Virus record (IMG/VR): IMGVR_UViG_3300046481_000005 | Coordinates: 1-31,180 of that record | Direction: 5' to 3' (one strand) | Origin: a virus | Length of the DNA stretch: 31,180 bases | Shown: in pieces, positions 1 to 29,150 of the stretch | How the letters are laid out: each line of letters begins with the position of its first letter | Numbering within the stretch: the stretch's first letter is position 1 | Program-made: the position numbers and the translations under genes | Notes under the pieces: model-generated | What the model was told of the DNA's origin: nothing | Databases searched by the model: none | The model's input: only the letters and a program-made list of their open reading frames with translations

Positions 1-1026
1 AATCGTTACTCCCTTGATTGGCAGTACCTTTGGCTGGGAAATAAGTTAATGAATAAACGGCTCCAGGTCTGCATGACCTGTATGGACAAGCCGTCTGTCT
101 TCCTTCGCCCTGTCATTATCCCCGCTGACCCGCCTCCGATTTACCAGCCGCGCACCGAGACGTACGCGATTGACGAAGCGGGCGGCTACGCCACGCCTGT
201 CTTTATCGCCACCGTGGGGGTGGTAGTTCAGGTTCCGGTCCCCTCATGGGCGTCTGGATTTCTCACCGACTGCTACGGCTCCGGGGCCTCCGGCTCCGTT
301 CTGAACGGCTCCTACCCCAACATAGGCGGCGGCGGCACGGCGTTTTCCCGCACGCTAAGAATCCCGGTCACCGGCGGCTCGTTCATTTACGTCTTCGTCG
401 CGCCCGGTGGGACCGCTGGCGGGAACGGGGCGAACACCTGGGCTTCGTTAACCAACGCCGCGCCTACGAGCACAGCGAACGGATGCTCGGCCCAAGGCGG
501 CTTCGCGCCGGACCTGACGACGCTCCCAGGCCCAACCATAGGGCGCGGCGGTCAGGCGTCGGCGTGCATCGGCGACCTGACCTATTCAGGCGGTGACGGC
601 GGTCTGGCGGCCATCGGCCCAGGGAACACGGGCGGAACTGGCGGCGGCGGCGCGGCTGGGCCAGAAGGCCCCGGCTCGAATGCGTCTGACACGACGGCGA
701 CCAACAACGGATCGCATGGCGGCTCAAGCGACGGCGTGCGGGGACAGGGAACCGGCGGCCTGGGCAGCGCGGGGACGGCTGCTGTTATGGCCACCCTGGG
801 CGGCAGCGGCGAGAACGGCAAATCCGACTACGTTTACGCCATGGCTGGCGGCGCGGGCGGCGGCGCCGGCGCGGGCGGCGGCGGCCCTTCTTTGACGAAC
901 GCCGACCCGGGCGGCGCGGGGGGCGTGTATGGCGGCGGTGGAGGCGGCGGCGGTTATGGCGCCGCAGTTAACGGCCTCGGCGGTCCTGGCGGCCATGGTT
1001 TCTGCGTTATCAGGTGGCTCCAATGA
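1..1026 (+). CDS. Glycine-rich tail-fibre-like protein A (5' partial)
   Basis: The frame is open from base 1, so the gene begins left of the window; the first ATG inside it, at 49, is probably internal. The visible 341 codons start with the second half of a zinc-ribbon module: VCMTC near residue 23, followed by a Pro-rich stretch ending TYAIDE. The downstream neighbour has the same layout with a complete CxxC...CxxC, so the missing first CxxC should lie just outside the window. The rest is almost entirely Gly/Ala/Ser repeats ending in a GGYGAAVNG-like motif and a short beta-like tail. Glycine-rich domains of this kind occur in phage tail fibres and receptor-binding proteins. The role is inferred from composition and position; adhesion or tail-tip structure is likely, the exact function unknown. 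Confidence 0.7.
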   Translation, partial: NRYSLDWQYLWLGNKLMNKRLQVCMTCMDKPSVFLRPVIIPADPPPIYQPRTETYAIDEAGGYATPVFIATVGVVVQVPVPSWASGFLTDCYGSGASGSVLNGSYPNIGGGGTAFSRTLRIPVTGGSFIYVFVAPGGTAGGNGANTWASLTNAAPTSTANGCSAQGGFAPDLTTLPGPTIGRGGQASACIGDLTYSGGDGGLAAIGPGNTGGTGGGGAAGPEGPGSNASDTTATNNGSHGGSSDGVRGQGTGGLGSAGTAAVMATLGGSGENGKSDYVYAMAGGAGGGAGAGGGGPSLTNADPGGAGGVYGGGGGGGGYGAAVNGLGGPGGHGFCVIRWLQ

Positions 1027-2645
1027 CGCGGCGGTTTTTCTCCCGCGCTACCGAGAACCCGATGAACCCCGAGGCGCGGGGCGTCTGCGATCGATGTGGC
1101 ATGGTCTTCGACCACAACGCCCTCCGGCCCCAAACGCGCCAAGGGCCAGGAAGCCTGATTCCGTCGAAGTTGATGGTCTGCAATGCGTGTTTCGATCTCC
1201 CTATGCCGTGGATGCGAACGTTCTGGCTTCCGCAGGACCCGCCGAACATCGCATTCCCATCTCCTGAATTTTACGCGATCGATGAGCGCACCGACTGGAA
1301 TCTGTTTCCGGTTCCAGGGACGCCCGGCTTCTTTTACGGCACGGCTCATATGACCGTGTCCGTCACGGTGGAGAAGATGCTGGCGGCGAATTTCGCCGCC
1401 GTCGCCTCGGCGTCTGCGACGTTGCAGGCGGCGTATGTCGTCGCCGCGCCTTTCGTCGCGACAGCGTCTCTTTCAGCAAATATCGCGGTCAATTTCGGCC
1501 TTATCGCCCCTATGGCCGCCGTTGGCGTTATGTCCGTCGCGGTCTCCATCCCAATGTCAGTCACCGCCTCGATGACGGCGACCGGCGCGATGACCTGCGC
1601 GGTCACGAATACAATGCCGCTCGCCGTCTCGATGACGGCGACGGGGGCGATGACGGCGGCGGTCTACAACTCCGTCAACGTAGCGGTCTCCATGACCGCG
1701 ACCGGCGTGATGACCTGCGGCGTCGTGCGCGCGGTTACGACGATTTTGAACGCCGGGACCACGACGTGGCCTGTCCCAACTGGCGTAACGGCGGTGCGGG
1801 CGCGCGCAGTCGGCTCGGGCGCGGCTGGCCTCACGCCCACCACAACGCTTTATGGTCCTGGCGGCGGCGGCGCAGGGTATTCTGATACAACGGCGGTGAC
1901 CACGACGCCGGGGGCTACCACCTGGTGTTCGATCGGCCCGAGCGCGGCGGCCAACGGCGCGGGCGCGGGTACGTGGTGGAGCGTCGCCTCAAACGCGGCC
2001 CCGGCGGTTGTTGCAAACGGCGTGCTCGCCAAGGGCGGCGCGGCGGGTAATTCGGGAATAGGCGCGGGCGGCGTCGGCGGAGCGGCGGCGAGCGGCGTCG
2101 GCAATGTCAAGAACAGCGGCGGCAATGGCGGGACGGCGAACCCTGTTGGGGTTGCTGGCGGCGGAGGGGGCGGCGGCTCGGGCGGCCCTAACGGCAACGG
2201 CGGAAACGGCGGCTCGGTCCCGTCCACCAGCGCTGGCGGAGGGGGTGGCGGAGGCGCGGATGGCGGCGCGACGGCGGCCAATGTGGCGGCGGCCTCCAAC
2301 TCCGGGACAGCAGGCGGCAATGGGTTTGGCGGGACGGGCGGCGGTGTAGCCAATGGCGGCGCAGGCTCGTCAGGCGGCGGCGGGGGCGGCGGTAATGGCA
2401 GCACTACGGGAACCGGCGTCACTGGCGGCGCGGGCGGCTCAAGCCTTGCGCTCACCACGTCTATCGGGCTTGGCGGCGGAGGCGGCGGCGGAGGCGGCAT
2501 AACTAATCAGGTCGGAACCGGCGGAGCTGGCGGAGCCGGGGCCAATTACGGCGGCGGTGGTGGCGGCGGCGGTTACGGTGCGACATTGAATGGCGCTGGC
2601 GGGGCCAGCGGGGCGGGCGTGCTCGTCCTAACGTACTTTGCATAG
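1023..2645 (+). CDS. Glycine-rich tail-fibre-like protein B
   Basis: A 540-residue protein, paralogous to the gene before it. ATG 1023 overlaps the upstream stop as ATGA and has AGGTGG about 8 bases before it; a GTG at 1014 and an ATG at 1062 are alternatives. Domains in order: a zinc ribbon (CDRC at 22-25, CNAC at 53-56) followed by a Pro-rich segment ending FYAIDE; an Ala/Val/Thr beta-rich region carrying three 20-residue repeats with SMTATG cores; and a C-terminal half of about 300 residues dominated by Gly with runs of GGGG, closing with GGYGATLNG and a hydrophobic tail. This looks like a fibre: metal-stabilised head, repeated stalk, glycine-rich tip. Tail-fibre or receptor-binding function is an inference from architecture and virion-module context. 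Confidence 0.7.
   Translation: MTRRFFSRATENPMNPEARGVCDRCGMVFDHNALRPQTRQGPGSLIPSKLMVCNACFDLPMPWMRTFWLPQDPPNIAFPSPEFYAIDERTDWNLFPVPGTPGFFYGTAHMTVSVTVEKMLAANFAAVASASATLQAAYVVAAPFVATASLSANIAVNFGLIAPMAAVGVMSVAVSIPMSVTASMTATGAMTCAVTNTMPLAVSMTATGAMTAAVYNSVNVAVSMTATGVMTCGVVRAVTTILNAGTTTWPVPTGVTAVRARAVGSGAAGLTPTTTLYGPGGGGAGYSDTTAVTTTPGATTWCSIGPSAAANGAGAGTWWSVASNAAPAVVANGVLAKGGAAGNSGIGAGGVGGAAASGVGNVKNSGGNGGTANPVGVAGGGGGGGSGGPNGNGGNGGSVPSTSAGGGGGGGADGGATAANVAAASNSGTAGGNGFGGTGGGVANGGAGSSGGGGGGGNGSTTGTGVTGGAGGSSLALTTSIGLGGGGGGGGGITNQVGTGGAGGAGANYGGGGGGGGYGATLNGAGGASGAGVLVLTYFA
1569..1748 (+). repeat. Three 60-bp tandem coding repeats
   Basis: Units begin at 1569, 1629 and 1689, each opening TC(G/C)ATGACNGCGAC and encoding SMTATG(A/V)MT plus a variable stretch. 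The period is exactly 20 codons, so copy number can change without a frameshift. This fits a repeated beta segment in the stalk of the glycine-rich tail protein. Confidence 0.75.
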
Positions 2646-6632: not shown

Positions 6633-7505
6633 ATGCCGTTAGCGAAGGGCAAGAGCCAGAAGACAATTTCCCATAACATCGCTGAAATGGTCAACGCAGG
6701 AAACCCGCAAAAGCAGGCGGTCGCCGCCGCGCTCGACACCGCCCGCCGGTCAGCGCGCGCCAGCGGCGGCCTTATCAAGGCGGCCCCAGGTCAGCCCGCG
6801 TCTCCGGGTTTCTCGAAACGGACGCCCTCGCCGAATGATGACCAGTCGGGGACGCGGTCAGATAATCAGTTTTTCGCAAGCGGCGGCGCGTCCGAGAAAC
6901 CGGAAGTCGGCGGCGGCAAACCGCTTGAGTTCCCCGATATCCCCAAGATGACCCTGGCGAAGGGGCGCGGCGGCCCGACAGTGAATCCGCCCGCTATCGC
7001 CCACGTCCCATGGCGGGTCAAATCTCAGCCGACCAACGTCACCGGCCCTCTGATCGGGACGACGCCCGGGCGCGCCGATAAGCTGCCTATGTCCGTTCCC
7101 AACGGCTCCCACGTGCTGCCCGCCGACACGGTCGCGGCGCTCGGCGACGGCAACTCGATGGCTGGTCACCACGTCCTGAAGAATATGTTTCCCCACTCCG
7201 GCGGCTCATCTTCGGGAAGCCCATTTCCTGGCTCTTCCGATAAAATGGGACATCCCATGGGACGCCGGGGGGCGAAACCTAGCGCGTTCGGCAGGGGCGG
7301 CGCGTCCTTTGAATCGCTGGGGGGCCACCCGCATCAGGTCGACGTCAACGTGTCCCACGGCGAGTTTATCATTCACCCGCATGACGTCGCCCGCGTAGGC
7401 GGCGGTGATATCAAGAAAGGACACGCGGCCCTAGACAAGTTCATCCTTAAAGTACGAGATCACTATCAGAAGAAACTCAAGAGATTACCAGGACCCAGTA
7501 AATGA
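6633..7505 (+). CDS. Structural/scaffold-like protein with DUF6496-type N-terminus
   Basis: A 290-residue protein, 4 bases after its neighbour. The first 40 residues, MPLAKGKSQKTISHNI then GNPQKQAVAAALDTARR, match a short motif seen at the start of many small phage proteins (DUF6496-like). The middle is Gly/Pro/Ser-rich and probably disordered. Two related blocks follow: LPMSVPNGSHVLPADTVAALGDGNSMAGH near 150-180 and VDVNVSHGEFIIHPHDVARVGGGDIKKGH near 246-275, which look like duplicated 'G-x-H/Y-V-L/I-x-P' beta units. The C-terminus is basic (KKLKRLPGPSK). A virion or assembly role is inferred from context; no enzyme motif is seen. Confidence 0.55.
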   Translation: MPLAKGKSQKTISHNIAEMVNAGNPQKQAVAAALDTARRSARASGGLIKAAPGQPASPGFSKRTPSPNDDQSGTRSDNQFFASGGASEKPEVGGGKPLEFPDIPKMTLAKGRGGPTVNPPAIAHVPWRVKSQPTNVTGPLIGTTPGRADKLPMSVPNGSHVLPADTVAALGDGNSMAGHHVLKNMFPHSGGSSSGSPFPGSSDKMGHPMGRRGAKPSAFGRGGASFESLGGHPHQVDVNVSHGEFIIHPHDVARVGGGDIKKGHAALDKFILKVRDHYQKKLKRLPGPSK

Positions 7506-7984
7506 ACATAAGCAATGTCCAGCCATTGCCGTACGTCCGTCCAGGAGTTATGGGCGATTATAGCGACTTAATCGCGATGGGGCATGAGGTATTTCAAGAG
7601 AACGGCCTTATGGAACTCGATGAAAGCCTTATCCGAGAGGGGGCTTTAGCAGCAATCCGAGGTGAAGAATCCGTTATCGGCTGTATCGGACCTGTCGGCG
7701 CATTAGAGGCGGCGATTCACCTATCTATGCGCCGTTTCTGGTACACTAGTGACGCGCATCTTGAAGAACTCTGGGCTTTTGTCCGACCGCAGTTCAGACG
7801 GTCAAAAAATGCTCAGGCTCTTATTGAGTTCGCAAAAGCTTTAGCGGTAGAATTGAAACGGCCTCTGTTGATCGGGGTTCTATCGTCGCAAAAAACTGAA
7901 GCAAAAGTTAAGTTGTATCAGAGGAAGTTAGGAGCGCCTAAAGGCGCTTACTTCCTGTTTAACACGGAAACTGGAGTTGGATAA
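7502..7984 (+). CDS. GNAT-family N-acetyltransferase
   Basis: A 160-residue protein whose ATG overlaps the previous stop (ATGA). Length and layout fit a GNAT fold: an N-terminal strand and helix (DYSDLIAMGHEVFQENG), a central strand near 56-61 (SVIGCIG), an acetyl-CoA-loop-like segment near 97-108 (QFRRSKNAQALI, in the position of the usual R/Q-x-x-G-x-A/G) and a late region with VKLYQRKLGA, typical of the final GNAT helix. GNATs in phage structural modules are thought to acetylate virion or host proteins; the substrate here is unknown. By eye the gene is less GC-rich than its flanks and uses more A/T-ending codons, hinting at separate acquisition. It is embedded between two virion genes. Confidence 0.65.
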   Translation: MNISNVQPLPYVRPGVMGDYSDLIAMGHEVFQENGLMELDESLIREGALAAIRGEESVIGCIGPVGALEAAIHLSMRRFWYTSDAHLEELWAFVRPQFRRSKNAQALIEFAKALAVELKRPLLIGVLSSQKTEAKVKLYQRKLGAPKGAYFLFNTETGVG

Positions 7985-10900
7985 TGGGCGGCGGTTCTCA
8001 GACAACAGGCCAAAATCAGACCCAGGCCCCTAACCCCATCGCCATGGCGGGTTACACCAACGTCATGGGCGGCGCGCAGAATATCGCCGCCGCCAATCAA
8101 AACTGGAACCCGGCGATGGGGGTTAACGTCGCCGGGCAGGATCCCATGCAAACGCAGGGGTATCAGGGGATTCAGAGCCAGCTCGGCCAGTATTCTCCGT
8201 ATTACCAGCAGGCTTTGGATTTGGCGCAGAACGCCGGTCAGGGGGTGAACGGCAACGATATCGCCAATTTCCAGAACCCCTACACGCAGAACGTTATTAA
8301 TACGACCATGGCCAACGCCCAGCAACAGCAGGGCGCGGCGTTGCAGAACGTCGTCGGCAACCAGATCGCGCAGAACGCCCAGGGCGGCGACCGCGCGCAG
8401 TTGCAGAAGGCGCTCACGGAAGGCCAGTTCGCCATGGCCAACAACGCCACGACGGCGGGGCTTGAGCAGAGCGGCTATAACTCGGCCCTCGCCGCCGCTC
8501 AGGCTCAAAAGGGCCAGCAGTTACAGGCGTCTTATGGTCTCGCCAATCAGGCGTCCGGCGCCCAGAATTATAACCTTCAGGGGCTCGGCGCGCTTATCGG
8601 CGCTGGCGGGGCGCAGCAGGCTCAGCAGCAGAATGTCTACAACGCCGCGACTCAGAACGCGACGAGCCAGACCATGTGGCCGATGCAGCTTCAGCAGTGG
8701 CTTGCGGGCATAACCGGCAGCATGGGCTCCCTCATGGGCGGCACTACGACGGGGTCCAGCACCACTGAGCAGCATCCGGGATTTTTCAACTATCTCGGCG
8801 CGGGTCTTGGCGGTCTGTCGGCAATGTCCGATGAACGTACAAAAGAAAACAAGAGAGTCGTCGGCGAGCTGTACGACGGTCAGAAGGTCTATGCGTACAA
8901 CTATAAGGGCCACCCCGTCACTCAGCTTGGCCTTATGGCTCAGGAGGTGGAGAAACATCACCCCGAGTCCGTGGGCGAGCACGGCGGCGTAAAATCTGTT
9001 CAGTATGATATGGCGACCGAGGACGCGGCGAAACGCGGCAAGTTCGCCAACGGCGGCGCTCCGGGGTTCGCGGGCGGCGGGAACCCATGGGACACGTCCG
9101 TGGGGCCGTGGGGCGGTCTGGTTCAGCCTGGAGGGGGCGGCCTGGGCGCGAAGCCAAATTTCGGTCAGCTTCCGAACGCCCCGGCCATGAACATGGATAG
9201 CGGTCAGAACCAGTCCAAGCAGGCGAAAGACACCGTCAAGGGCGCTAAGGACATCTGGTCGAAGTATATGAACCAGTCCGGAGCCAACGCTCCGGCGACT
9301 GACACCACGTCCCTTGGCTCGTCTGACGCCCTCGGCTCGTCTGACGCCCTCGGCTCGGGCGCTGGCCCCGGCGCGTCGGGTCCGGCCGCCAGCAGCGCGG
9401 GGAACCCGGCCGCCATCGGCGCGGGGACTGATAGCGGGGCGACGTCAGCCACTCTCGGCGGCGGGGATACTCTGAGCGCCACCATGGGCAGCGGGGGTTC
9501 AGGTCTGACGACCGGCATGGGGGCGTCGGGAATCGGCGCGGCTGAGGCTGCGCCAGCGTTTGGAGCCACAACTGGCGCTGGCGTGGCTGGCGCGTCCATG
9601 GCGGAAGGAACAGCCGCTGCGGGCGCAGGCGCTGGCGCGGCGGCTGGCGCGGGCGCAGAGGCCGCCGGAGCTGGCGCGGCTGGCGCAAGCGAAGGCGTCG
9701 GCGGCGGCCTGATGGCGTTGCTAGCCCTTCTTGCTGATGGCGGCGAAGTCGGTGGCGAGAAACACGCCCGCAGGATGCGCAAGCACGCCCATAAAATGCT
9801 CAGGCTCGCGGGCGGCGGCATGGCGGAGGACCCAGACCCCGAGGCGACCCTCACTCAGGATGATTTCTCGACGCTGGGCGGACAGCGCGACGAGGTGGAG
9901 AAACCTCGTGACGAGCTGGAGAAGCCACACGACGAGCGTACCTTGTGGAACCCGTACGAGCGGCTGTGGAACCCGCACGAGAGAAAGCCAGAGGCGGCGA
10001 AGGCGGAAGCCAGGGCGCTGGCCGAGGTCTCCAAGATCAAGACCTTGCCCGATATCGCGGGCGCCCAGCCATCGGCTACCGGCGACCAATCCCTTCCGCC
10101 GATGGCTGGCGGGAACGCTTTAACTTCAGAAGCAGCGGGCGAGGGCATCCCTATGTCCGGCCCGAGAACACATAAGGCGCGGGCTCTTGAAGAGCTTCCG
10201 CCGATCGCCGGGGCTCGCCCAGGCATGCAGGCGGCCGAGCCTTTGCCGCCGGTCGCTGGCGGCCAGACCGCTATCCCCGTGGGGGCGGGCGAGTCGTGGT
10301 CTCCTGAAGACGAGTTGGCTGGGGGGCCGAAACAGGCGCAAATCCCGCCTGAAATGACGCGGCCGCCAGAAGAACTCGCCAAGGAGGCCGAGCGCCCAAT
10401 CAGCGGCGGCCCTGTTAGCGCATTGGCTGCGAAGTCAGAGCTGACCCACCCTATCGCCAATCCAGAAGCTGTCCCTGCGAACTGGGATCGCATGACCCCG
10501 GAAGAGAAGTTCGTCTGGGCGACTGGCCACGGGTCAGCGGCTCCAGAGCTGCCCGAGCGCAATATCGTGGAGAAGTCGCGCCTGGACGCCGAGCGGGAGA
10601 TTGAAGCTGACAAGCGGGCGAAACTCCTCCGCTATGCCGAGGCCGCGCAGAACGCAGTGCGTTTAAACGGCCCCTCGGGCGATCAGGTTACGCCAGTCGG
10701 CGAGGGGCCGACGCCTCCGCTGCCCGAGCGCAAACCGCCTACCCCATTCGCCGCGCGCCACGCAGCGGCTATCCCCAATCTGGCCCCAGGCCCGGACGAG
10801 AACACGTCGTGGATACGCCCCGCTGAACCGGCTGGCGGATTTAACGAGCCGAAGTCGAATTATGACCTGTTCAAGAGCGCGCTCTCAAGAGCTGGCCATA

Positions 10901-13158
10901 ACCTGACGACGTTCGATATCCCGCCAAGGGAACAGGCGGCGGTCCCGGCCGCGCCTGTCACCGAGGCGTCAAAGACTATCCCGGCGGAGCAGGCTCCGGC
11001 GCTGACCAAGACGTTCAAGATCAACCCGCAGACCGGCGAGCCTATGACCCCGGCCGAGGACTTGGCCGCCACTGAAAAAGAACTGGCCCATAAGGTCGAG
11101 CCATATTCGGGCGGCGTCGGGGCTCCGAAAGCCGGTAACGCGGGCGAGGAAATCCCTCGCCGGTATGGCGAGGGCGCGCGCGTGTCAATCACGAAGTCCA
11201 TGCACTTCGAAAATGACCTCGGCGGCGTGACGCGGGACACCGGCGGCAATCCGTCCATGGGGCACTACGGCATTTTAGCGACGAAGGGCGGCGGCTCGGC
11301 GGGCGAGTTTTTCCACGATCACGGCGCGGAGCTGGGCTTCACCCACAACCCGCGCCAGGACCCGTGGGGTTTCGCCGCCGATTGGAAGCGCATCGCCAAA
11401 GATAATCCGCAGGGCCTGGAGGCTGCTGAAGACAACTGGCACGACAAATATATTAAAAGCTCGGTGAGGTCTCATATTCTGGACGCCGGTCTTCCCGGCC
11501 CCGTCGCCGAAGACCCACGTGTTCAGCAGTATTTTGAGGACCGCTACGTGCAGCATGGGACGGGCATCAGCAAGGACCCCGAGGGGCGTAACGGCTCGGG
11601 GCGGATCAAGCGCGCGTGGGCTGGCGCTGACGGCGATATCCCAACGTTCCTCAAGAACATGACGGCTATCGATAAGTCCCATGTCCGCCAGGATTTCGAG
11701 ACATATCTTAGCGAAAACCCCAGCCATCAGCCAGGGCTTGAAAAGCGCATCAACAACCGTCTCGCCGGAGCGCTCGGCGAGAATGTTCAGCCCGGCGGCA
11801 AGTCCGATCAGGTGGCCGAGGCCGCCAAGTCGGTAAAAGAGGAGGCCGAGAACAAGCCGAAGTCGGCGGCCGAACTGCTTCCGCACGAGCAGAACCAAGT
11901 CAATTTCGTTCAGAAAATCCTCGGTGGGTGGAACCCGCTGGAGGGGATCACCGGACCCGGCAAAGAAGGCAAGGATAGCTGGAACCCGCTCGGCATGACG
12001 TCGGACCAGCGGCGCAACCTCATGGTCACCGGCCTCTCTATGATGGGTGGCAATCCGCTTGGGTGGCAGGCGGCGGGCGCCGGGGCGACCGGCATGCAGG
12101 CCGGACAGCAGATGCAGATGAACGAGCAGAGTATGGGCGTCCAGCGCGCCAAGCTGGCTCTTGAAGCGATGAACCAGCCGAAGTTCGCGCCCGCGCACTG
12201 GTCCGATATTTTGGGCGTTCAGCACGCGGGATCGATGGACGTCCACAGCGGCGCGATCACCGAGGCTGGCCAGACCGCGCCGACCACTGGACCTTCAGCC
12301 CCGGCTCCAGGGACCATGCAGGTTGGATCGCCTGGAGCCGCTGGAGCGGCGCAGCCGACCGGCGAGGCGACGGTTGATCAGATGTTCCGCCAGTACCCTG
12401 GCACGCGGGAGACCGCCGAGGGCATCCTCGACGGGTCAAAAAAGATGGAGTCGGTTCCGGCCAGGATGCGCGCGGGCATGGAGGAGGCCGTTCGCGCTGT
12501 CGCGAGACAGCGCGGCGAGACTTACGACCCGCAGGCGCTCGCCGTAAAACAGACTTTCCGCTCAGAATACAACAGCGGAAAGTCTCCTGAAGGTAAGATA
12601 AGACAGGCTCTTGAGACGGGCACAACCCATCTTGGGGATTTAACCGAGTTAAATAAGGTTCTTCCTGACCATAGTAGGTTTATGGCGGCTAATTTCTATG
12701 GGCCGAAGGAAGAATCTTTCGGCCATGATAAGAACCGGGAAGCCTGGAAGACTATGACCCATGGTCTTGCTGGCGAGCTGGCGAAGTTGGAGGGCGGCGG
12801 CCAGGGCTCGGACACCGACCGTAAAAAGTGGGAAGACGCGCTCAGCCCCGACCAGCCGAGAGAAAAGCGCGCTGCATCGCTCGCCGCCGCCGTGCGCCTG
12901 ATGCACGGCAACCTCCAGGGCCTTGATCAGCAGTGGGAATCGAATATCGGCAAGACGTGGAAAAAGAACGAGGTCCTGTCGCCCCGTTCGCGCGACATTG
13001 TTGATAAGGCGAACCAGACGTTCTGGGGGAATATCGCCGAGAAAACCCCAGGTTCTGCGGCTCAACCCATTCAAGTGAGAACATCGGCGGAAGCCATGAA
13101 ACTCCCAAGAGGAACGCGTTTCCTTGATCCGAACGGCGTTGAAAGGGTGCGACCATGA
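7984..13158 (+). CDS. Giant DNA-ejection protein with internal S74 motif and lysozyme-like region
   Basis: A 1724-residue protein; ATG overlaps the previous stop (TAATG). In order: a Gln/Asn/Ala-rich helical N-terminus (1-270); a peptidase S74-like block at about 281-350 (SDERTKENKR, LYDGQKVYAYNYKG, QLGLMAQEVEKHHPE); Gly/Ala/Ser low-complexity sequence with short repeats (about 350-600); charged repeats and four imperfect LPxxAGxxP units (about 600-760); a region at about 1065-1255 with HYGILATKGGGSAGEFF, WKRIA and AEDNWHDKYI, resembling VgrG3-like peptidoglycan hydrolases; then Ala/Gln helices and a C-terminus with LPRGTRFLDPNGVERVRP, common in phage ejection proteins. Size and neighbours fit a protein ejected into the cell envelope ahead of the DNA. 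The muralytic call is tentative. Confidence 0.7.
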   Translation: MGGGSQTTGQNQTQAPNPIAMAGYTNVMGGAQNIAAANQNWNPAMGVNVAGQDPMQTQGYQGIQSQLGQYSPYYQQALDLAQNAGQGVNGNDIANFQNPYTQNVINTTMANAQQQQGAALQNVVGNQIAQNAQGGDRAQLQKALTEGQFAMANNATTAGLEQSGYNSALAAAQAQKGQQLQASYGLANQASGAQNYNLQGLGALIGAGGAQQAQQQNVYNAATQNATSQTMWPMQLQQWLAGITGSMGSLMGGTTTGSSTTEQHPGFFNYLGAGLGGLSAMSDERTKENKRVVGELYDGQKVYAYNYKGHPVTQLGLMAQEVEKHHPESVGEHGGVKSVQYDMATEDAAKRGKFANGGAPGFAGGGNPWDTSVGPWGGLVQPGGGGLGAKPNFGQLPNAPAMNMDSGQNQSKQAKDTVKGAKDIWSKYMNQSGANAPATDTTSLGSSDALGSSDALGSGAGPGASGPAASSAGNPAAIGAGTDSGATSATLGGGDTLSATMGSGGSGLTTGMGASGIGAAEAAPAFGATTGAGVAGASMAEGTAAAGAGAGAAAGAGAEAAGAGAAGASEGVGGGLMALLALLADGGEVGGEKHARRMRKHAHKMLRLAGGGMAEDPDPEATLTQDDFSTLGGQRDEVEKPRDELEKPHDERTLWNPYERLWNPHERKPEAAKAEARALAEVSKIKTLPDIAGAQPSATGDQSLPPMAGGNALTSEAAGEGIPMSGPRTHKARALEELPPIAGARPGMQAAEPLPPVAGGQTAIPVGAGESWSPEDELAGGPKQAQIPPEMTRPPEELAKEAERPISGGPVSALAAKSELTHPIANPEAVPANWDRMTPEEKFVWATGHGSAAPELPERNIVEKSRLDAEREIEADKRAKLLRYAEAAQNAVRLNGPSGDQVTPVGEGPTPPLPERKPPTPFAARHAAAIPNLAPGPDENTSWIRPAEPAGGFNEPKSNYDLFKSALSRAGHNLTTFDIPPREQAAVPAAPVTEASKTIPAEQAPALTKTFKINPQTGEPMTPAEDLAATEKELAHKVEPYSGGVGAPKAGNAGEEIPRRYGEGARVSITKSMHFENDLGGVTRDTGGNPSMGHYGILATKGGGSAGEFFHDHGAELGFTHNPRQDPWGFAADWKRIAKDNPQGLEAAEDNWHDKYIKSSVRSHILDAGLPGPVAEDPRVQQYFEDRYVQHGTGISKDPEGRNGSGRIKRAWAGADGDIPTFLKNMTAIDKSHVRQDFETYLSENPSHQPGLEKRINNRLAGALGENVQPGGKSDQVAEAAKSVKEEAENKPKSAAELLPHEQNQVNFVQKILGGWNPLEGITGPGKEGKDSWNPLGMTSDQRRNLMVTGLSMMGGNPLGWQAAGAGATGMQAGQQMQMNEQSMGVQRAKLALEAMNQPKFAPAHWSDILGVQHAGSMDVHSGAITEAGQTAPTTGPSAPAPGTMQVGSPGAAGAAQPTGEATVDQMFRQYPGTRETAEGILDGSKKMESVPARMRAGMEEAVRAVARQRGETYDPQALAVKQTFRSEYNSGKSPEGKIRQALETGTTHLGDLTELNKVLPDHSRFMAANFYGPKEESFGHDKNREAWKTMTHGLAGELAKLEGGGQGSDTDRKKWEDALSPDQPREKRAASLAAAVRLMHGNLQGLDQQWESNIGKTWKKNEVLSPRSRDIVDKANQTFWGNIAEKTPGSAAQPIQVRTSAEAMKLPRGTRFLDPNGVERVRP
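9313..9357 (+). repeat. 18-bp tandem repeat (2.5 copies)
   Basis: Two full copies of CT(T/C)GGCTCGTCTGACGCC at 9313 and 9331 plus a half copy at 9349, encoding LGSSDA-LGSSDA-LGS in the low-complexity part of the ejection protein. It is in frame and looks like a recent slippage duplication. Confidence 0.75.
10661..10668. repeat. GTTTAAAC palindrome, copy 3
   Basis: Lies in the ejection-protein gene as CGT-TTA-AAC (Arg-Leu-Asn), with CGTTTAAACG intact. Confidence 0.6.
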
Positions 13159-19435: not shown

Positions 19436-20836
19436 TTAGCGAGGGGGAGTGAGCCCCATCGCGCTATTAAGCTGTCCGCGCAGGGCGTCGGTGGCCGGGC
19501 TCCCCTGCGCCATCCCATAGGCTCCCTGGGGCGAGGCTGGGGCGGCCTTCGCGGCGTTGTCCGCCTCGATCTGGGCCTTTGTCCGGCGGGTGCGCTTTGA
19601 CTTGGCGGCCTCGCCCTCGATTGCCGCGCCGCTGTGCGTATCGGTAGGCTGGTTCTGCGCCGGGGCGTCATACTCGACGTCGCCAGTCTCGTAGGCGTCA
19701 GGTCCTGCAACCTGCTGCGCGCCGGTCGCCGGTCCATGCTGGACCTGATAGACATGGCGGACAGGCTGCTCTGTCGGCTGCTGCTGGTAGCCGCCCCCAG
19801 GCTGGTTCGCATAACCCTGATTAGGCTGCGCATAACCACTGCCCGCTCCACCGCCTGCATACGCCTGATTCGGTCCCTGCTGCTGGTTGAACTGCTGCTG
19901 CTGGTAGCCGCCCCCAGGCTGGTTCACATAACCCTGATTAGGCTGCGCATAACCACTGCCCGCTCCACCGCCTGCATACGCCTGATTCGGTCCCTGCTGC
20001 TGGTTGAACTGCTGCGCTGGCTGCGCGGCTGGGGTATAGGCGAGAGCTGGCTGACCTGCGGGCGCGGCCAAGGCTGGCGCCCAGGTCGCCGGATCAATCG
20101 GCCTGTCATTCGCGCCGAGGAGCGCCTGTGTCTCCGAAGAGAGCATATGGCGGTGAATGATAGGCGTCGAGTTTGGGCCGTGAAACTGCTCATTGTAGCC
20201 AAGCGGGCTCAACGTGAACCTTATGAACCCTTCCTCGTTGGCGATGAAGTAGGCGCGGATCATCACCGACTCGACGCGGGTGATGCGGCCGTCTCTCATC
20301 ATCTGCAACAGCGAACCCCAGTTGGTGAACGCCGCTGGCGGGATATCGAACTGCAACACCGTGTCCCAACTGAACGACGGCACGATAACGGCCAGACGCT
20401 TCTTGGTGGTGCACGCCGGGATTTTCTCGCCGCGCTGAGACAGCGCCGAGCCCCACTCTTTCGCCCAGCAATTCGAGCAGAACGCGGACTGTGGGCTCCT
20501 GGACTCGACCGAGGGGCCAATGCCATTTTCTGACGTACAGACGGGAGGCTGCTTGTTCTTCGGATCGTAGGTGCTGACCTGGGCTGGTCCGGGGATGTTC
20601 GGGTCCTTCGGGGCCAGGGGGAAATGAAGGCGCAGCGGATGCTTGGCCAGTCCGACGAGAATGAATTCGAGGTAAGTCGCCTTGGCGACGTCATCCCACA
20701 TGCCAATCGAGCGGGATTCCTTCCCGACGACCGCCTGCCACTCTTTGTTGTCGGTGCTTATGTGCGCCTGCCTGCCCATCGAAATGCCGACAAGCATGTC
20801 ATCCATAAGATTGGGAAGGGCGAGTTCATTCGTCAT
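19436..20836 (-). CDS. Cys4 protein with Pro/Gln/Gly-rich tail, ssDNA-binding candidate
   Basis: About 466 residues from ATG 20836 (AAGGAG 9 bases upstream); a TTG at 20842 sits too close to that site. Residues 1-240 form a globular region with four cysteines (C100, C120, C123, C142) around WAKEWGS and a KRLAV strand, a pattern seen in phage proteins encoded beside replication genes. From about 245 the sequence becomes Ala/Pro/Gln/Gly-rich, including two 39-residue repeats starting QFNQQQGPNQ. A basic KSKRTRRTKAQIE stretch lies near the end. A zinc-stabilised core plus a flexible tail resembles single-stranded DNA-binding proteins, and the helicase/nuclease neighbours agree, but there is no proof of an OB fold. 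It overlaps the upstream gene by 11 bases. Confidence 0.6.
   Translation of the reverse strand: MTNELALPNLMDDMLVGISMGRQAHISTDNKEWQAVVGKESRSIGMWDDVAKATYLEFILVGLAKHPLRLHFPLAPKDPNIPGPAQVSTYDPKNKQPPVCTSENGIGPSVESRSPQSAFCSNCWAKEWGSALSQRGEKIPACTTKKRLAVIVPSFSWDTVLQFDIPPAAFTNWGSLLQMMRDGRITRVESVMIRAYFIANEEGFIRFTLSPLGYNEQFHGPNSTPIIHRHMLSSETQALLGANDRPIDPATWAPALAAPAGQPALAYTPAAQPAQQFNQQQGPNQAYAGGGAGSGYAQPNQGYVNQPGGGYQQQQFNQQQGPNQAYAGGGAGSGYAQPNQGYANQPGGGYQQQPTEQPVRHVYQVQHGPATGAQQVAGPDAYETGDVEYDAPAQNQPTDTHSGAAIEGEAAKSKRTRRTKAQIEADNAAKAAPASPQGAYGMAQGSPATDALRGQLNSAMGLTPPR
19780..20013 (-). repeat. 117-bp tandem duplication
   Basis: Two adjacent 117-bp units encode 39 residues each (QFNQQQGPNQ ... GGGYQQQ). 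I see a single difference inside the unit, giving Ala versus Val. The near-identity means the duplication is recent or maintained by recombination, and it keeps frame. Confidence 0.8.
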
Positions 20837-21308
20837 TCGCAATGTCTCCTTTTTTGCGAACCTTGATAAATACTGTAGACGTCCTATTCAGCCCAGGCGG
20901 TATGAAATCTTCTAGCACCGCTGGTCCTGGTTTTACTCCGTCTATATAGTCGTCCAATCGCTGGGACGCCCAGGCGTCTATGTCTGAGGCGGATGGTCTG
21001 AGGTCGAAAAGTTCCCATACGCTCCAGTCATTTTGCTGAAGCAGCCAGCGAAGAACGGCGGCCTTATCGACCACCTTATACTCGACCTTCCTTGTTGTAT
21101 AGGCCGTTCCTGATGGGGCTGACACGCTATCAAGGCGGCTCTGTACAAGAGTAGAGGCGAGATAATTCCCGAGAAGAGTTTTCCCCTTCTCATATTCACT
21201 CATCGCAGCTTTCAGTTTTTCTTGTTCAGTCTTGATATAAGCTCTAAGCCTGATGAATTGTTTAATCATCGGCTCAAGTTCATCAACGAGCAGCGGCTTG
21301 TCAGTCAT
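20826..21308 (-). CDS. Conserved phage replication-associated protein
   Basis: 160 residues from ATG 21308, which overlaps the helicase gene's end; a TTG at 21326 would add six residues. The N-terminus is a long helix (LEPMIKQFIRLRAYIKTEQEKLKAAMSEYEKG), followed by the motif SAPSGTAYTTRKVEYKVVDK and a helical segment with WLLQQNDWSVWELFDLRPS. The end is a Pro/Gly turn and a final strand (STVFIKVRKK). Similar proteins are frequent in Proteobacteria phages next to recombination or ssDNA-binding genes but have no settled function. Its place between the helicase and the Cys4 protein suggests an accessory of the same pathway. Confidence 0.6.
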   Translation of the reverse strand: MTDKPLLVDELEPMIKQFIRLRAYIKTEQEKLKAAMSEYEKGKTLLGNYLASTLVQSRLDSVSAPSGTAYTTRKVEYKVVDKAAVLRWLLQQNDWSVWELFDLRPSASDIDAWASQRLDDYIDGVKPGPAVLEDFIPPGLNRTSTVFIKVRKKGDIANDE

Positions 21309-26944: not shown

Positions 26945-26979
26945 AAAAAATAACCCGTGAGCCAGGGGGCCACGGGTTA
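26945..26979 (-). terminator. Intrinsic terminator after the outer-membrane protein gene
   Basis: On the minus strand TAACCCGTG pairs with CACGGGTTA (9-bp stem, 11-base loop) and is followed directly by TTTTTT. This is a textbook Rho-independent terminator for the gene at 27023-27721. It separates that gene from the replication operon. Confidence 0.8.
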
Positions 26980-27022
26980 GTTAGGAGTCGCCTATCACTG
27001 CGAGAGCAGCAAGCCCCTTACA

Positions 27023-27721
27023 TCAGAATTTATATCCCAAAGTCAAGAGGCCCCGGTCATCAGTTCCAGAAATATCAGCCTTATAGGCTATGTTTGTGGC
27101 TCCGGTCCCGGTCGCGGTCAACAGACCGTAGTCCACGCGTTCGGCGCGCACGCCAGCATACCAGCCGCGACCGAGGTTCACGTCAACGCCAGCGCCGAAC
27201 GCAACGCCGTCAGGGTCCGCCTTCATGGACGCCAGGACCGCAGAGCCCGTAGTATTGGTGAGGTCATGGGCGAGGTGGGATTTCTCATAGCCCACGAAGC
27301 CATAGAACAAGGCGTTACCCCAGGCGAGACCGGCGCGGACGTCGGCGCCATATGTGAACTGCGTGGACCCGGAGCCGTAGCCCAGGTTGCCGAACGCGCC
27401 GATCACGAGAGGGCTGTTCCTGAACTGATAGTCATAGCCAAGCTCGACCTGACCAACCGTCTCCATCTGGTAGCCGCCGTTTACAACGTCTGTGGATATC
27501 ACGTTGCCAGATGTGGATGACTCGGTCCCTGAACCCAGGCCGGTCTGACCGACGCCGACGCCGAGGCCGATGCGGAAGCCAGTCCACGACACGCCAGCGC
27601 ATGGGCCAACAACGTTCGAAAGAGCGTCGTCTTTGAAGCCGCCGCCCTGATTGCCGAGGTCCGCCGCCATCGCTGGCGCGGAGAACATCAGCATCGATAG
27701 GCCGATAAGAAACTTTTTCAT
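27023..27721 (-). CDS. Phage-encoded outer-membrane beta-barrel protein (Omp25/31-like)
   Basis: 232 residues from ATG 27721 (AGGGG 7 bases upstream); an upstream start at 27763 would bury the signal peptide. Residues 1-19 form a Sec signal peptide (MKKFLIGLSMLMFSAPAMA, cleavage before ADL). The mature part has about eight alternating strands such as WTGFRIGLGVGVG, VELGYDYQF, VIGAFGNLGYG, DVRAGLAWG, LFYGFVGYEKS and GWYAGVRAERVDYG, and ends LGYKF with the C-terminal Phe used by the BAM complex. This layout fits the porin-like OMP family of Alphaproteobacteria. It should sit in the host outer membrane. It has its own terminator, as a moron gene would. Possible roles are receptor masking, superinfection exclusion or altered permeability; none is shown. 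Confidence 0.8.
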   Translation of the reverse strand: MKKFLIGLSMLMFSAPAMAADLGNQGGGFKDDALSNVVGPCAGVSWTGFRIGLGVGVGQTGLGSGTESSTSGNVISTDVVNGGYQMETVGQVELGYDYQFRNSPLVIGAFGNLGYGSGSTQFTYGADVRAGLAWGNALFYGFVGYEKSHLAHDLTNTTGSAVLASMKADPDGVAFGAGVDVNLGRGWYAGVRAERVDYGLLTATGTGATNIAYKADISGTDDRGLLTLGYKF

Positions 27722-27771
27722 GTTATCCCCTGTTGTTGGTCGCTGAGTCATACCCGTTTTCATATAGTTTG

Positions 27772-27806
27772 CCCACCCTCTACCCTGTAGTTGGTCAAAG
27801 GGTGGG
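27772..27806. promoter_or_regulatory. Imperfect inverted repeat upstream of the outer-membrane protein gene
   Basis: Arms CCCACCCT (27772-27779) and AGGGTGGG (27799-27806) with a weaker inner pairing (ACC/GGT). It lies between the 73-aa gene and the barrel gene and has no U-tract. It could be an operator or an RNA hairpin limiting read-through. A TATATG box follows on the minus strand but I see no good -35 element. Confidence 0.4.
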
Positions 27807-27823
27807 ACAAATAGGCAACAGGG

Positions 27824-28045
27824 TCAGGCTATGGGGTCAGTGCCGAAAGTCAGGTCGGCGACGTCTTCGGCGGTCCCGATCTCGCCCGTTATGGTGACAG
27901 GCTCAGCCAACGTATTATAGCTCGGCTGGCCTGCGTTGTTCACGTCGGCAATACCAGACTCCGGCGCAGCCTCGGCGCGATCGAGTAGTTCATTCACTTG
28001 TGGGTCAACTGGGGTAAGGTCAATCGGTTCATCTGGGCAAGTCAT
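27824..28045 (-). CDS. Small acidic protein (73 aa)
   Basis: ATG 28045 overlaps the previous stop as ATGA and has AAGG about 9 bases upstream; starts further upstream fall inside the neighbouring gene. The product is acidic and polar (TCPDEPIDLTPVDP ... GTAEDVADLTFGTDPIA), with no Lys or Trp and no recognised domain. Acidic small early proteins often act as inhibitors or DNA mimics in phages, but that is only a general expectation here. Confidence 0.5.
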   Translation of the reverse strand: MTCPDEPIDLTPVDPQVNELLDRAEAAPESGIADVNNAGQPSYNTLAEPVTITGEIGTAEDVADLTFGTDPIA

Positions 28046-28920: not shown

Positions 28921-28980
28921 AGGTCGCGGCGGAGAGGGAAGCAACCCCACGACCAAAAACGTTGTCGGCGACAATTCGAG

Positions 28981-29069
28981 TAGACCTGCATGGATTCGAA
29001 CCATGATCTCGCGCCAGTCCAGCGCTTACGGGGTATAAATCCGCTGCTCTACCATTGAGTTACAGGTCC
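28981..29069 (-). tRNA. Class II-shaped tRNA, anticodon UAU
   Basis: On the minus strand: acceptor GGACCTG/CAGGTCT (one G-U), TA linker, D arm with loop AATGGTA, anticodon stem GCGGA/CCCGT with an A-C mismatch next to the loop, loop TTTATAC giving anticodon UAU, a 22-base variable arm with a GCGC/GCGC stem, T arm CATGG-TTCGAAT-CCATG, and discriminator A. CCA is not encoded. UAU would read the Ile codon AUA, but a long variable arm belongs to Leu, Ser or Tyr tRNAs, so the charged amino acid is uncertain. Confidence 0.7.
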
Positions 29070-29075
29070 TAAAAC

Positions 29076-29150
29076 TGGTCGAGGTGAGTCGACTTGAACG
29101 ACCATATTCCTGCCTCCAAAGCAGACCCATTACCATTATGGTACACCTCG
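29076..29150 (-). tRNA. tRNA-Pro, anticodon UGG
   Basis: Complete cloverleaf on the minus strand: acceptor CGAGGTG/CACCTCG, D arm CCAT-AATGGTA-ATGG, anticodon arm TCTGC-TTTGGAG-GCAGG (anticodon UGG), variable loop AATAT, T arm GGTCG-TTCAAGT-CGACT, discriminator A and an encoded CCA. It reads CCA (and by wobble CCG) proline codons. It lies 6 bases from the other tRNA, so they are probably cut from one transcript. Confidence 0.85.

What the first reader, a model, noticed from the sequence alone, without database searches (positions are those of the whole stretch)
27023..27721. Phage carries a gene for a host-type outer-membrane beta-barrel
A signal peptide, barrel strands and C-terminal Phe are all present, and the gene is closed off by a strong terminator, like a moron. 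Known phage outer-membrane proteins such as lambda Lom change the host surface; this one looks like alphaproteobacterial Omp25/31 proteins. It may block the receptor against superinfecting phages or change host physiology.
Basis: partly seen in the sequence, partly recalled or inferred. Interest (0 to 1): 0.68.

Follow-up and report, generated by a model that had tools for sequence, protein, structure and literature searches.

The report
Phage-carried Omp25-type outer-membrane barrel gene
A bacterial virus carries, at the end of one of its operons, a gene for a small barrel protein of the outer membrane that resembles surface proteins of rhizobia and their kin; a sister virus lacks it, so it is optional cargo that probably changes the surface of the infected cell.

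Summary
Window 27023-27721 (minus strand) encodes a 232-aa protein with a Sec signal peptide and a C-terminal Phe. With 14 genomic relatives as alignment, AlphaFold2 gives an 8-stranded barrel (pLDDT 77) that matches OmpA, NspA, OmpW and OprG at Z 16-18. Pfam, PHROGs, NCBIfam and PDB sequence searches give no hit. A profile made from ten rhizobial Omp25/31-type proteins still aligns over the full length (30 bits; best of 2,200 shuffles 10), and Hyphomicrobiales chromosomes hold proteins up to 34% identical. So it is a divergent relative of Omp25/31-type barrels.

The gene is true cargo. A sister virus (polymerase 91% identical) has the same flanking genes, terminator and downstream promoter-like site but no barrel gene; the difference is about 0.8 kb. 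The 'strong terminator' belongs to the operon, not to the gene. The gene's composition and codon use match the phage's.

At least five other viral contigs carry Omp25-type genes beside phage genes, so this is a recurrent kind of phage cargo, known in principle from Lom and from many unstudied phage barrels. Control of superinfection or re-adsorption is the likeliest role, but no result here tests it.

The parts
27023..27721 (-). CDS of the 232-aa Omp25/31-like outer-membrane barrel protein (predicted strands: residues 48-69, 84-99, 105-116, 121-134, 137-155, 171-184, 187-207, 212-231)
27665..27721 (-). Sec signal peptide, residues 1-19, cleavage after AMA
   Evidence: read from the sequence; aligned with the signal peptides of the relatives, AAD invariant in the plasmid set
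27727..27731 (-). ribosome-binding site AGGGG
   Evidence: sequence
27816..27823 (-). CCCTGTTG, directly after the stop codon of the acidic gene; predicted to pair with the ribosome-binding site of the barrel gene
   Evidence: one predicted fold, z -2.8; inference
26999..27834 (-). approximate stretch present here and absent from sister virus L003 (barrel gene and its leader)
26945..26979 (-). intrinsic terminator of the operon, also present in L003
26896..26925 (-). promoter-like TTGACA, 18 bases, TAAAAA; same spacing and hexamers in L003; start of the replication operon
   Evidence: sequence comparison; consensus only
27824..28045 (-). small acidic protein gene before the barrel gene, conserved in L003
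28475..28849 (-). 124-aa protein of the same operon, 77% identical in L003
26382..26876 (-). 164-aa protein, first gene after the terminator, conserved in L003
24481..26385 (-). family A DNA polymerase of the phage, 91% identical in L003

Best explanation
The gene encodes a divergent Omp25/31-like protein. It is exported by the Sec pathway, its signal peptide is removed, and the BAM machinery inserts it into the outer membrane of the infected alphaproteobacterial (probably Hyphomicrobiales) cell as an 8-stranded barrel. Shown by computation: signal peptide, barrel fold, kinship to the Omp25/31 type, and presence as optional cargo at the 3' end of a phage operon that ends at a shared terminator just before the replication operon. 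Inferred: it is made during infection together with the small proteins of that operon, perhaps by translational coupling to the acidic protein. Its outer loops then alter or mask a surface receptor, so that related phages, and the phage's own progeny at lysis, do not adsorb unproductively. This would be the functional analogue of the T5 lipoprotein Llp or the phi80/N15 protein Cor, with a barrel in their place.
For: Barrel and signal peptide. Kinship: profile 30.1 bits against 10.3 for the best of 2,200 shuffles, hhalign 97.9%, Tardiphaga protein 30% identical over the full length, E 5e-12. Cargo: clean presence/absence between sister viruses at one site. Settled in the phage: composition and codon use are phage-typical. 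Recurrent in viruses. Precedent that phages make early outer-membrane proteins against secondary and debris adsorption: T5 Llp, PMC9586334; Cor, PMC11436027.
Against: No result here tests a function. The receptor of this phage and its host are unknown. The known receptor blockers cited are not Omp25-type barrels. Whether the phage is virulent is unknown, because only part of the genome is in hand. No close relative of the gene was found in any other virus, so selection on it cannot be measured.
Confidence: 0.43

Rival explanations
1. Host-physiology cargo: the barrel changes outer-membrane permeability, stability, haem or nutrient uptake, or adhesion of the infected cell or lysogen, without effect on phage adsorption (as proposed for Lom-type conversion).
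For: The bacterial relatives are surface and porin-family proteins; Pap31, a relative of Omp31, binds haem and acts as an adhesin (PMC8877253). Several viral contigs with Omp25-type genes are temperate-like: integrase in L034, Rha-like regulator in L043.
Against: No lysogeny gene was seen in this window, so a benefit to a long-lived lysogen has no support here; but the record is probably a fragment.
Confidence: 0.3
2. Passing cargo without benefit: a host gene caught by illegitimate recombination and in course of loss.
For: Absent from the only close relative; the insertion lies at the harmless 3' end of an operon.
Against: The frame is intact, with ribosome-binding site and signal peptide; composition and codon use are phage-typical; no host protein is closer than about 34%, which does not look like a recent capture.
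Confidence: 0.17
3. The barrel is a virion component or an outer-membrane helper of release or lysis.
For: A Pap31 fragment is filed under a Bartonella phage in the viral structure library and is a weak fold match (E 0.03, probability 0.57).
Against: The gene lies on the minus strand with the DNA-metabolism genes, apart from the plus-strand virion and endolysin genes, and has a Sec signal peptide.
Confidence: 0.06
4. It is not an outer-membrane barrel but another secreted beta protein.
For: No standard library recognises the protein, and the model needed an alignment made of barrel proteins.
Against: Own-sequence strand alternation, full-length profile match, Z 16-18 to solved barrels.
Confidence: 0.04

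Closest known systems
Omp25/31-type outer-membrane proteins of Hyphomicrobiales (annotated 'outer membrane protein' or 'porin family protein'; Pfam PF13505 OMP_b-brl)
   Same: Signal peptide ending in AAD, W-(S/T)-G-F motif before strand 1, conserved glycines, 8 strands, C-terminal aromatic residue; full-length alignment
   Different: Only 20-34% identical; no PF13505 match even at E 10; encoded in a phage operon
Lom of phage lambda (Ail/Lom/OmpX-type barrels)
   Same: Small 8-stranded barrel encoded by a phage as optional cargo; solved OmpX and Ail match the model (Z 11-13)
   Different: No sequence match to any Pfam or PHROG family; fold matches to OmpA, NspA and OmpW are better than to OmpX or Ail; no sign of lysogeny in the window
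Llp of phage T5 and Cor of phi80/N15 (receptor-blocking proteins)
   Same: Proposed role only: phage proteins at the outer membrane that prevent re-adsorption (PMC9586334; PMC11436027)
   Different: Llp is a lipoprotein, not a barrel; role untested here
Barrels of uncultured phages in BFVD (for example A0A6J5MAZ5, 'COG3637 opacity protein'), and Omp25-type genes on viral contigs L029, L034, L042, L043, L044
   Same: Small barrels of the same fold class in phage genomes
   Different: 18% identity or less in the best structure alignments; the contig genes lie beside other genes, and none of 12 window proteins tested matches those loci

Membership tests
Omp25/31-type barrel (Pfam PF13505, OMP_b-brl) | Match to the curated Pfam model | tested here: not met
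   No hit in hmmscan at E up to 10 nor in the six-frame search, while all ten bacterial Omp25-type proteins hit it. It is therefore called Omp25/31-like, not a PF13505 member.
Omp25/31-type barrel (Pfam PF13505, OMP_b-brl) | Full-length homology to bacterial Omp25/31-type proteins | tested here: met
   remote, 20-34% identity. Part of the score comes from the signal peptide: 16.2 bits without it against 10.3 for the best shuffle.
Omp25/31-type barrel (Pfam PF13505, OMP_b-brl) | Signal peptide and 8-stranded outer-membrane barrel with C-terminal aromatic residue | tested here: met
   (prediction)
Omp25/31-type barrel (Pfam PF13505, OMP_b-brl) | Location in the outer membrane | not testable with these tools
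   Needs fractionation of cells that express it
Lom/Ail/OmpX-type barrel | Match to the family's sequence model | tested here: not met
   No Pfam or PHROG family hit
Lom/Ail/OmpX-type barrel | 8-stranded barrel fold | tested here: met
   OmpX and Ail match the model at Z 11-13, below OmpA, NspA and OmpW
Phage moron | Extra gene between two genes that are neighbours in a related phage | tested here: met
   L003 comparison
Phage moron | Own promoter | tested here: inconclusive
   No promoter-like site directly before the gene; nearest minus-strand match at 27914-27942, inside the acidic gene. Consensus scan only.
Phage moron | Own terminator | tested here: not met
   The terminator is shared with L003, which lacks the gene
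Superinfection-exclusion protein (T5 Llp type) | Reduced adsorption or infection of cells that make it | not testable with these tools
   Needs an experiment

The most novel reading that the evidence does not exclude
Omp25/31-type barrels are a recurrent, unrecognised class of proteins in viruses of Hyphomicrobiales that block receptors as integral barrels (a barrel counterpart of T5 Llp), here in a phage with no lysogeny gene in sight.
Probability: 0.25. Interest if true: 0.6.

Novelty: new member of a known kind. Interest (0 to 1): 0.38.

Why it matters
Phage-borne outer-membrane barrels are common in databases, but few have a tested function. A pair of sister viruses with and without the gene at the same site is a natural experiment, and the Omp25/31 class has convenient laboratory hosts. 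If the barrel controls adsorption, it would add a membrane-integral type of superinfection exclusion.

Tried and rejected
Pfam, NCBIfam, PHROGs and PDB sequence searches with the single protein: no hit. tblastn against phage and plasmid records up to E 10: none. Viral and genome contigs with exact peptides of the protein: none. Structure from the single sequence: useless (pLDDT 28). 385 alphaproteobacterial genomes: none at E 1e-5; 397 genomes of the order of Tardiphaga: six, best 34% identity. Host identification through the two phage tRNA genes: nothing. 'The terminator is the gene's own' was rejected by the sister virus. Contamination or misassembly was rejected: the flanks on both sides are phage genes that the sister virus has in the same order. 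A virion role was judged unlikely from gene position. I did not score other small barrels (for example OmpX) against the Omp25 profile, so the sequence result separates kinship from shuffled sequence, but less surely from other barrels.

Full report
What is there. The window is a whole IMG/VR virus record of 31,180 bases. The finding's coordinates hold a complete minus-strand gene of 232 codons. Its product starts with a Sec signal peptide (MKKFLIGLSMLMFSAPAMA|ADL) and ends in ...LGYKF. Virion genes lie on the plus strand up to about 18.1 kb: head, tail and ejection-type proteins and an endolysin. DNA-metabolism genes lie on the minus strand: SNF2-type helicase, exonuclease and family A polymerase. 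The better full-length relatives of the polymerase and of the tail protein come mostly from phage genomes of about 35-65 kb, so the record is likely a fragment.

Fold. Without relatives the prediction failed (pLDDT 28). With an alignment of 14 proteins from Hyphomicrobiales genomes (A7) it gave pLDDT 77, with 102 residues at 90 or more, and eight long strands. The solved structures that match best are small barrels: OmpA, NspA, OmpW, OprG and OprF (Z 16-18 over about 130-180 residues; Foldseek). Because the alignment could impose the fold, I tested the phage sequence alone: the alternation of membrane-facing and barrel-facing residues in the eight strands is matched by 6 of 20,000 shuffles (Kyte-Doolittle 200 of 20,000). 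Strands 7 and 8 add little to that score.

Family. General libraries miss it. Ten Omp25/31-type proteins from rhizobial and related plasmids all match PF13505. Their profile scores the phage protein at 30.1 bits over its full length, against 10.3 for the best of 2,200 shuffles; with the signal peptide removed it scores 16.2. hhalign gives a probability of 97.9%. A genome scan then found Hyphomicrobiales proteins with full-length matches: Tardiphaga 30%, E 5e-12; a Beijerinckiaceae genome 28%; and others. Among 397 genomes of that order the best was 34% over 212 residues. Searches that subtract composition bias give weaker values. So kinship with the Omp25/31 type is well supported but remote. 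Formal PF13505 membership fails, and no near donor is known.

Cargo and context. One close relative was found, L003 (polymerase 91% identical). It has the same upstream genes (124-aa protein 77% identical; a small cysteine-rich protein; the acidic protein), the same kind of terminator at the same place, the same promoter-like TTGACA-18-TAAAAA, and the same 164-aa and polymerase genes after it. It has no barrel gene there, and none was found elsewhere in its 20.9-kb record. The difference is about 0.8 kb, from the last codons of the acidic gene to just after the barrel's stop codon. The terminator is therefore the operon's. Gain or loss cannot be polarised with two viruses. Base composition and codon use of the gene are those of the phage.

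Expression. No promoter-like site lies directly before the gene. The leader folds so that CCCTGTTG, directly after the stop codon of the acidic gene, pairs with the ribosome-binding site of the barrel gene. A ribosome that ends on the acidic gene would open that helix. This is an inference from one predicted fold.

Recurrence. A profile of ordinary Omp25-type proteins found 18 viral contigs. Checked neighbours are phage genes in several: integrase, endonuclease and replication initiation (L034); a Rha-like regulator (L043); Erf, helicase, primase and transposase (L044); tail genes (L029) and a major head protein (L042). None of 12 proteins of the window matches these loci, so they are not close kin of the window's phage. 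Structure search also lists many barrels of uncultured phages. The finding is thus a new, well-bounded member of a known but little-studied kind.

Function. The role is inferred. Precedents exist for receptor-blocking phage proteins that act at the outer membrane and are made early (T5 Llp, PMC9586334), and Cor of phi80 and N15 inactivates FhuA (PMC11436027). A physiological or adhesive role, as for bacterial relatives such as Pap31 (PMC8877253), is the main rival. I give about 0.93 to 'outer-membrane 8-stranded barrel', 0.9 to 'optional phage cargo' and about 0.4 to control of receptors or adsorption.

Noticed in passing
window 27722-27830, minus strand: The leader of the barrel gene is predicted to hide the ribosome-binding site in a helix whose other arm lies directly after the stop codon of the acidic gene: a possible translational coupling.
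   Followed up: partly
window 27023-27070 against L003 1134-1190: The 3' end of the barrel gene (TTGACTTTGGGATATAAATTCTGA) resembles the 3' end of L003's acidic gene (CTGACTTTCGGGACACCGTCAAAATTCTAG); this may be the short homology at which the segment was exchanged, or chance.
   Followed up: no
window 7502-7984, plus strand: A gene with a weak match to phage acetyltransferases sits among the virion genes; its GC3 (0.47) and codon use are outliers in this phage.
   Followed up: no
window 7984-13158, plus strand: A 1,724-aa protein: the first 343 residues match phage DNA ejection proteins, and the stretch SDERTKENKR...GLMAQEV looks like an S74-type chaperone motif, followed by a very long tail of unknown content.
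   Followed up: no
window 19436-20842, minus strand: A 468-aa protein of the replication side holds a near-exact tandem repeat rich in Q, N and G (QQQFNQQQGPNQAYAGGGAGSGYAQPNQGY).
   Followed up: no
window 49-2645, plus strand: Two neighbouring proteins with very long glycine-rich stretches and alike C-terminal ends, possibly host-binding tail parts; no PHROG match.
   Followed up: no
window 28980-29150, minus strand: Two adjacent tRNA genes, Ile (anticodon TAT) and Pro (TGG), upstream of the operon that ends with the barrel gene.
   Followed up: partly
L043:5176-6183: A 335-aa Omp25-type protein with long inserted acidic loops lies after a Rha-like regulator gene in a 56-kb viral contig; its mature start (AADPFDRGGLKD) recalls that of the window's protein (AADLGNQGGGFKD).
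   Followed up: partly
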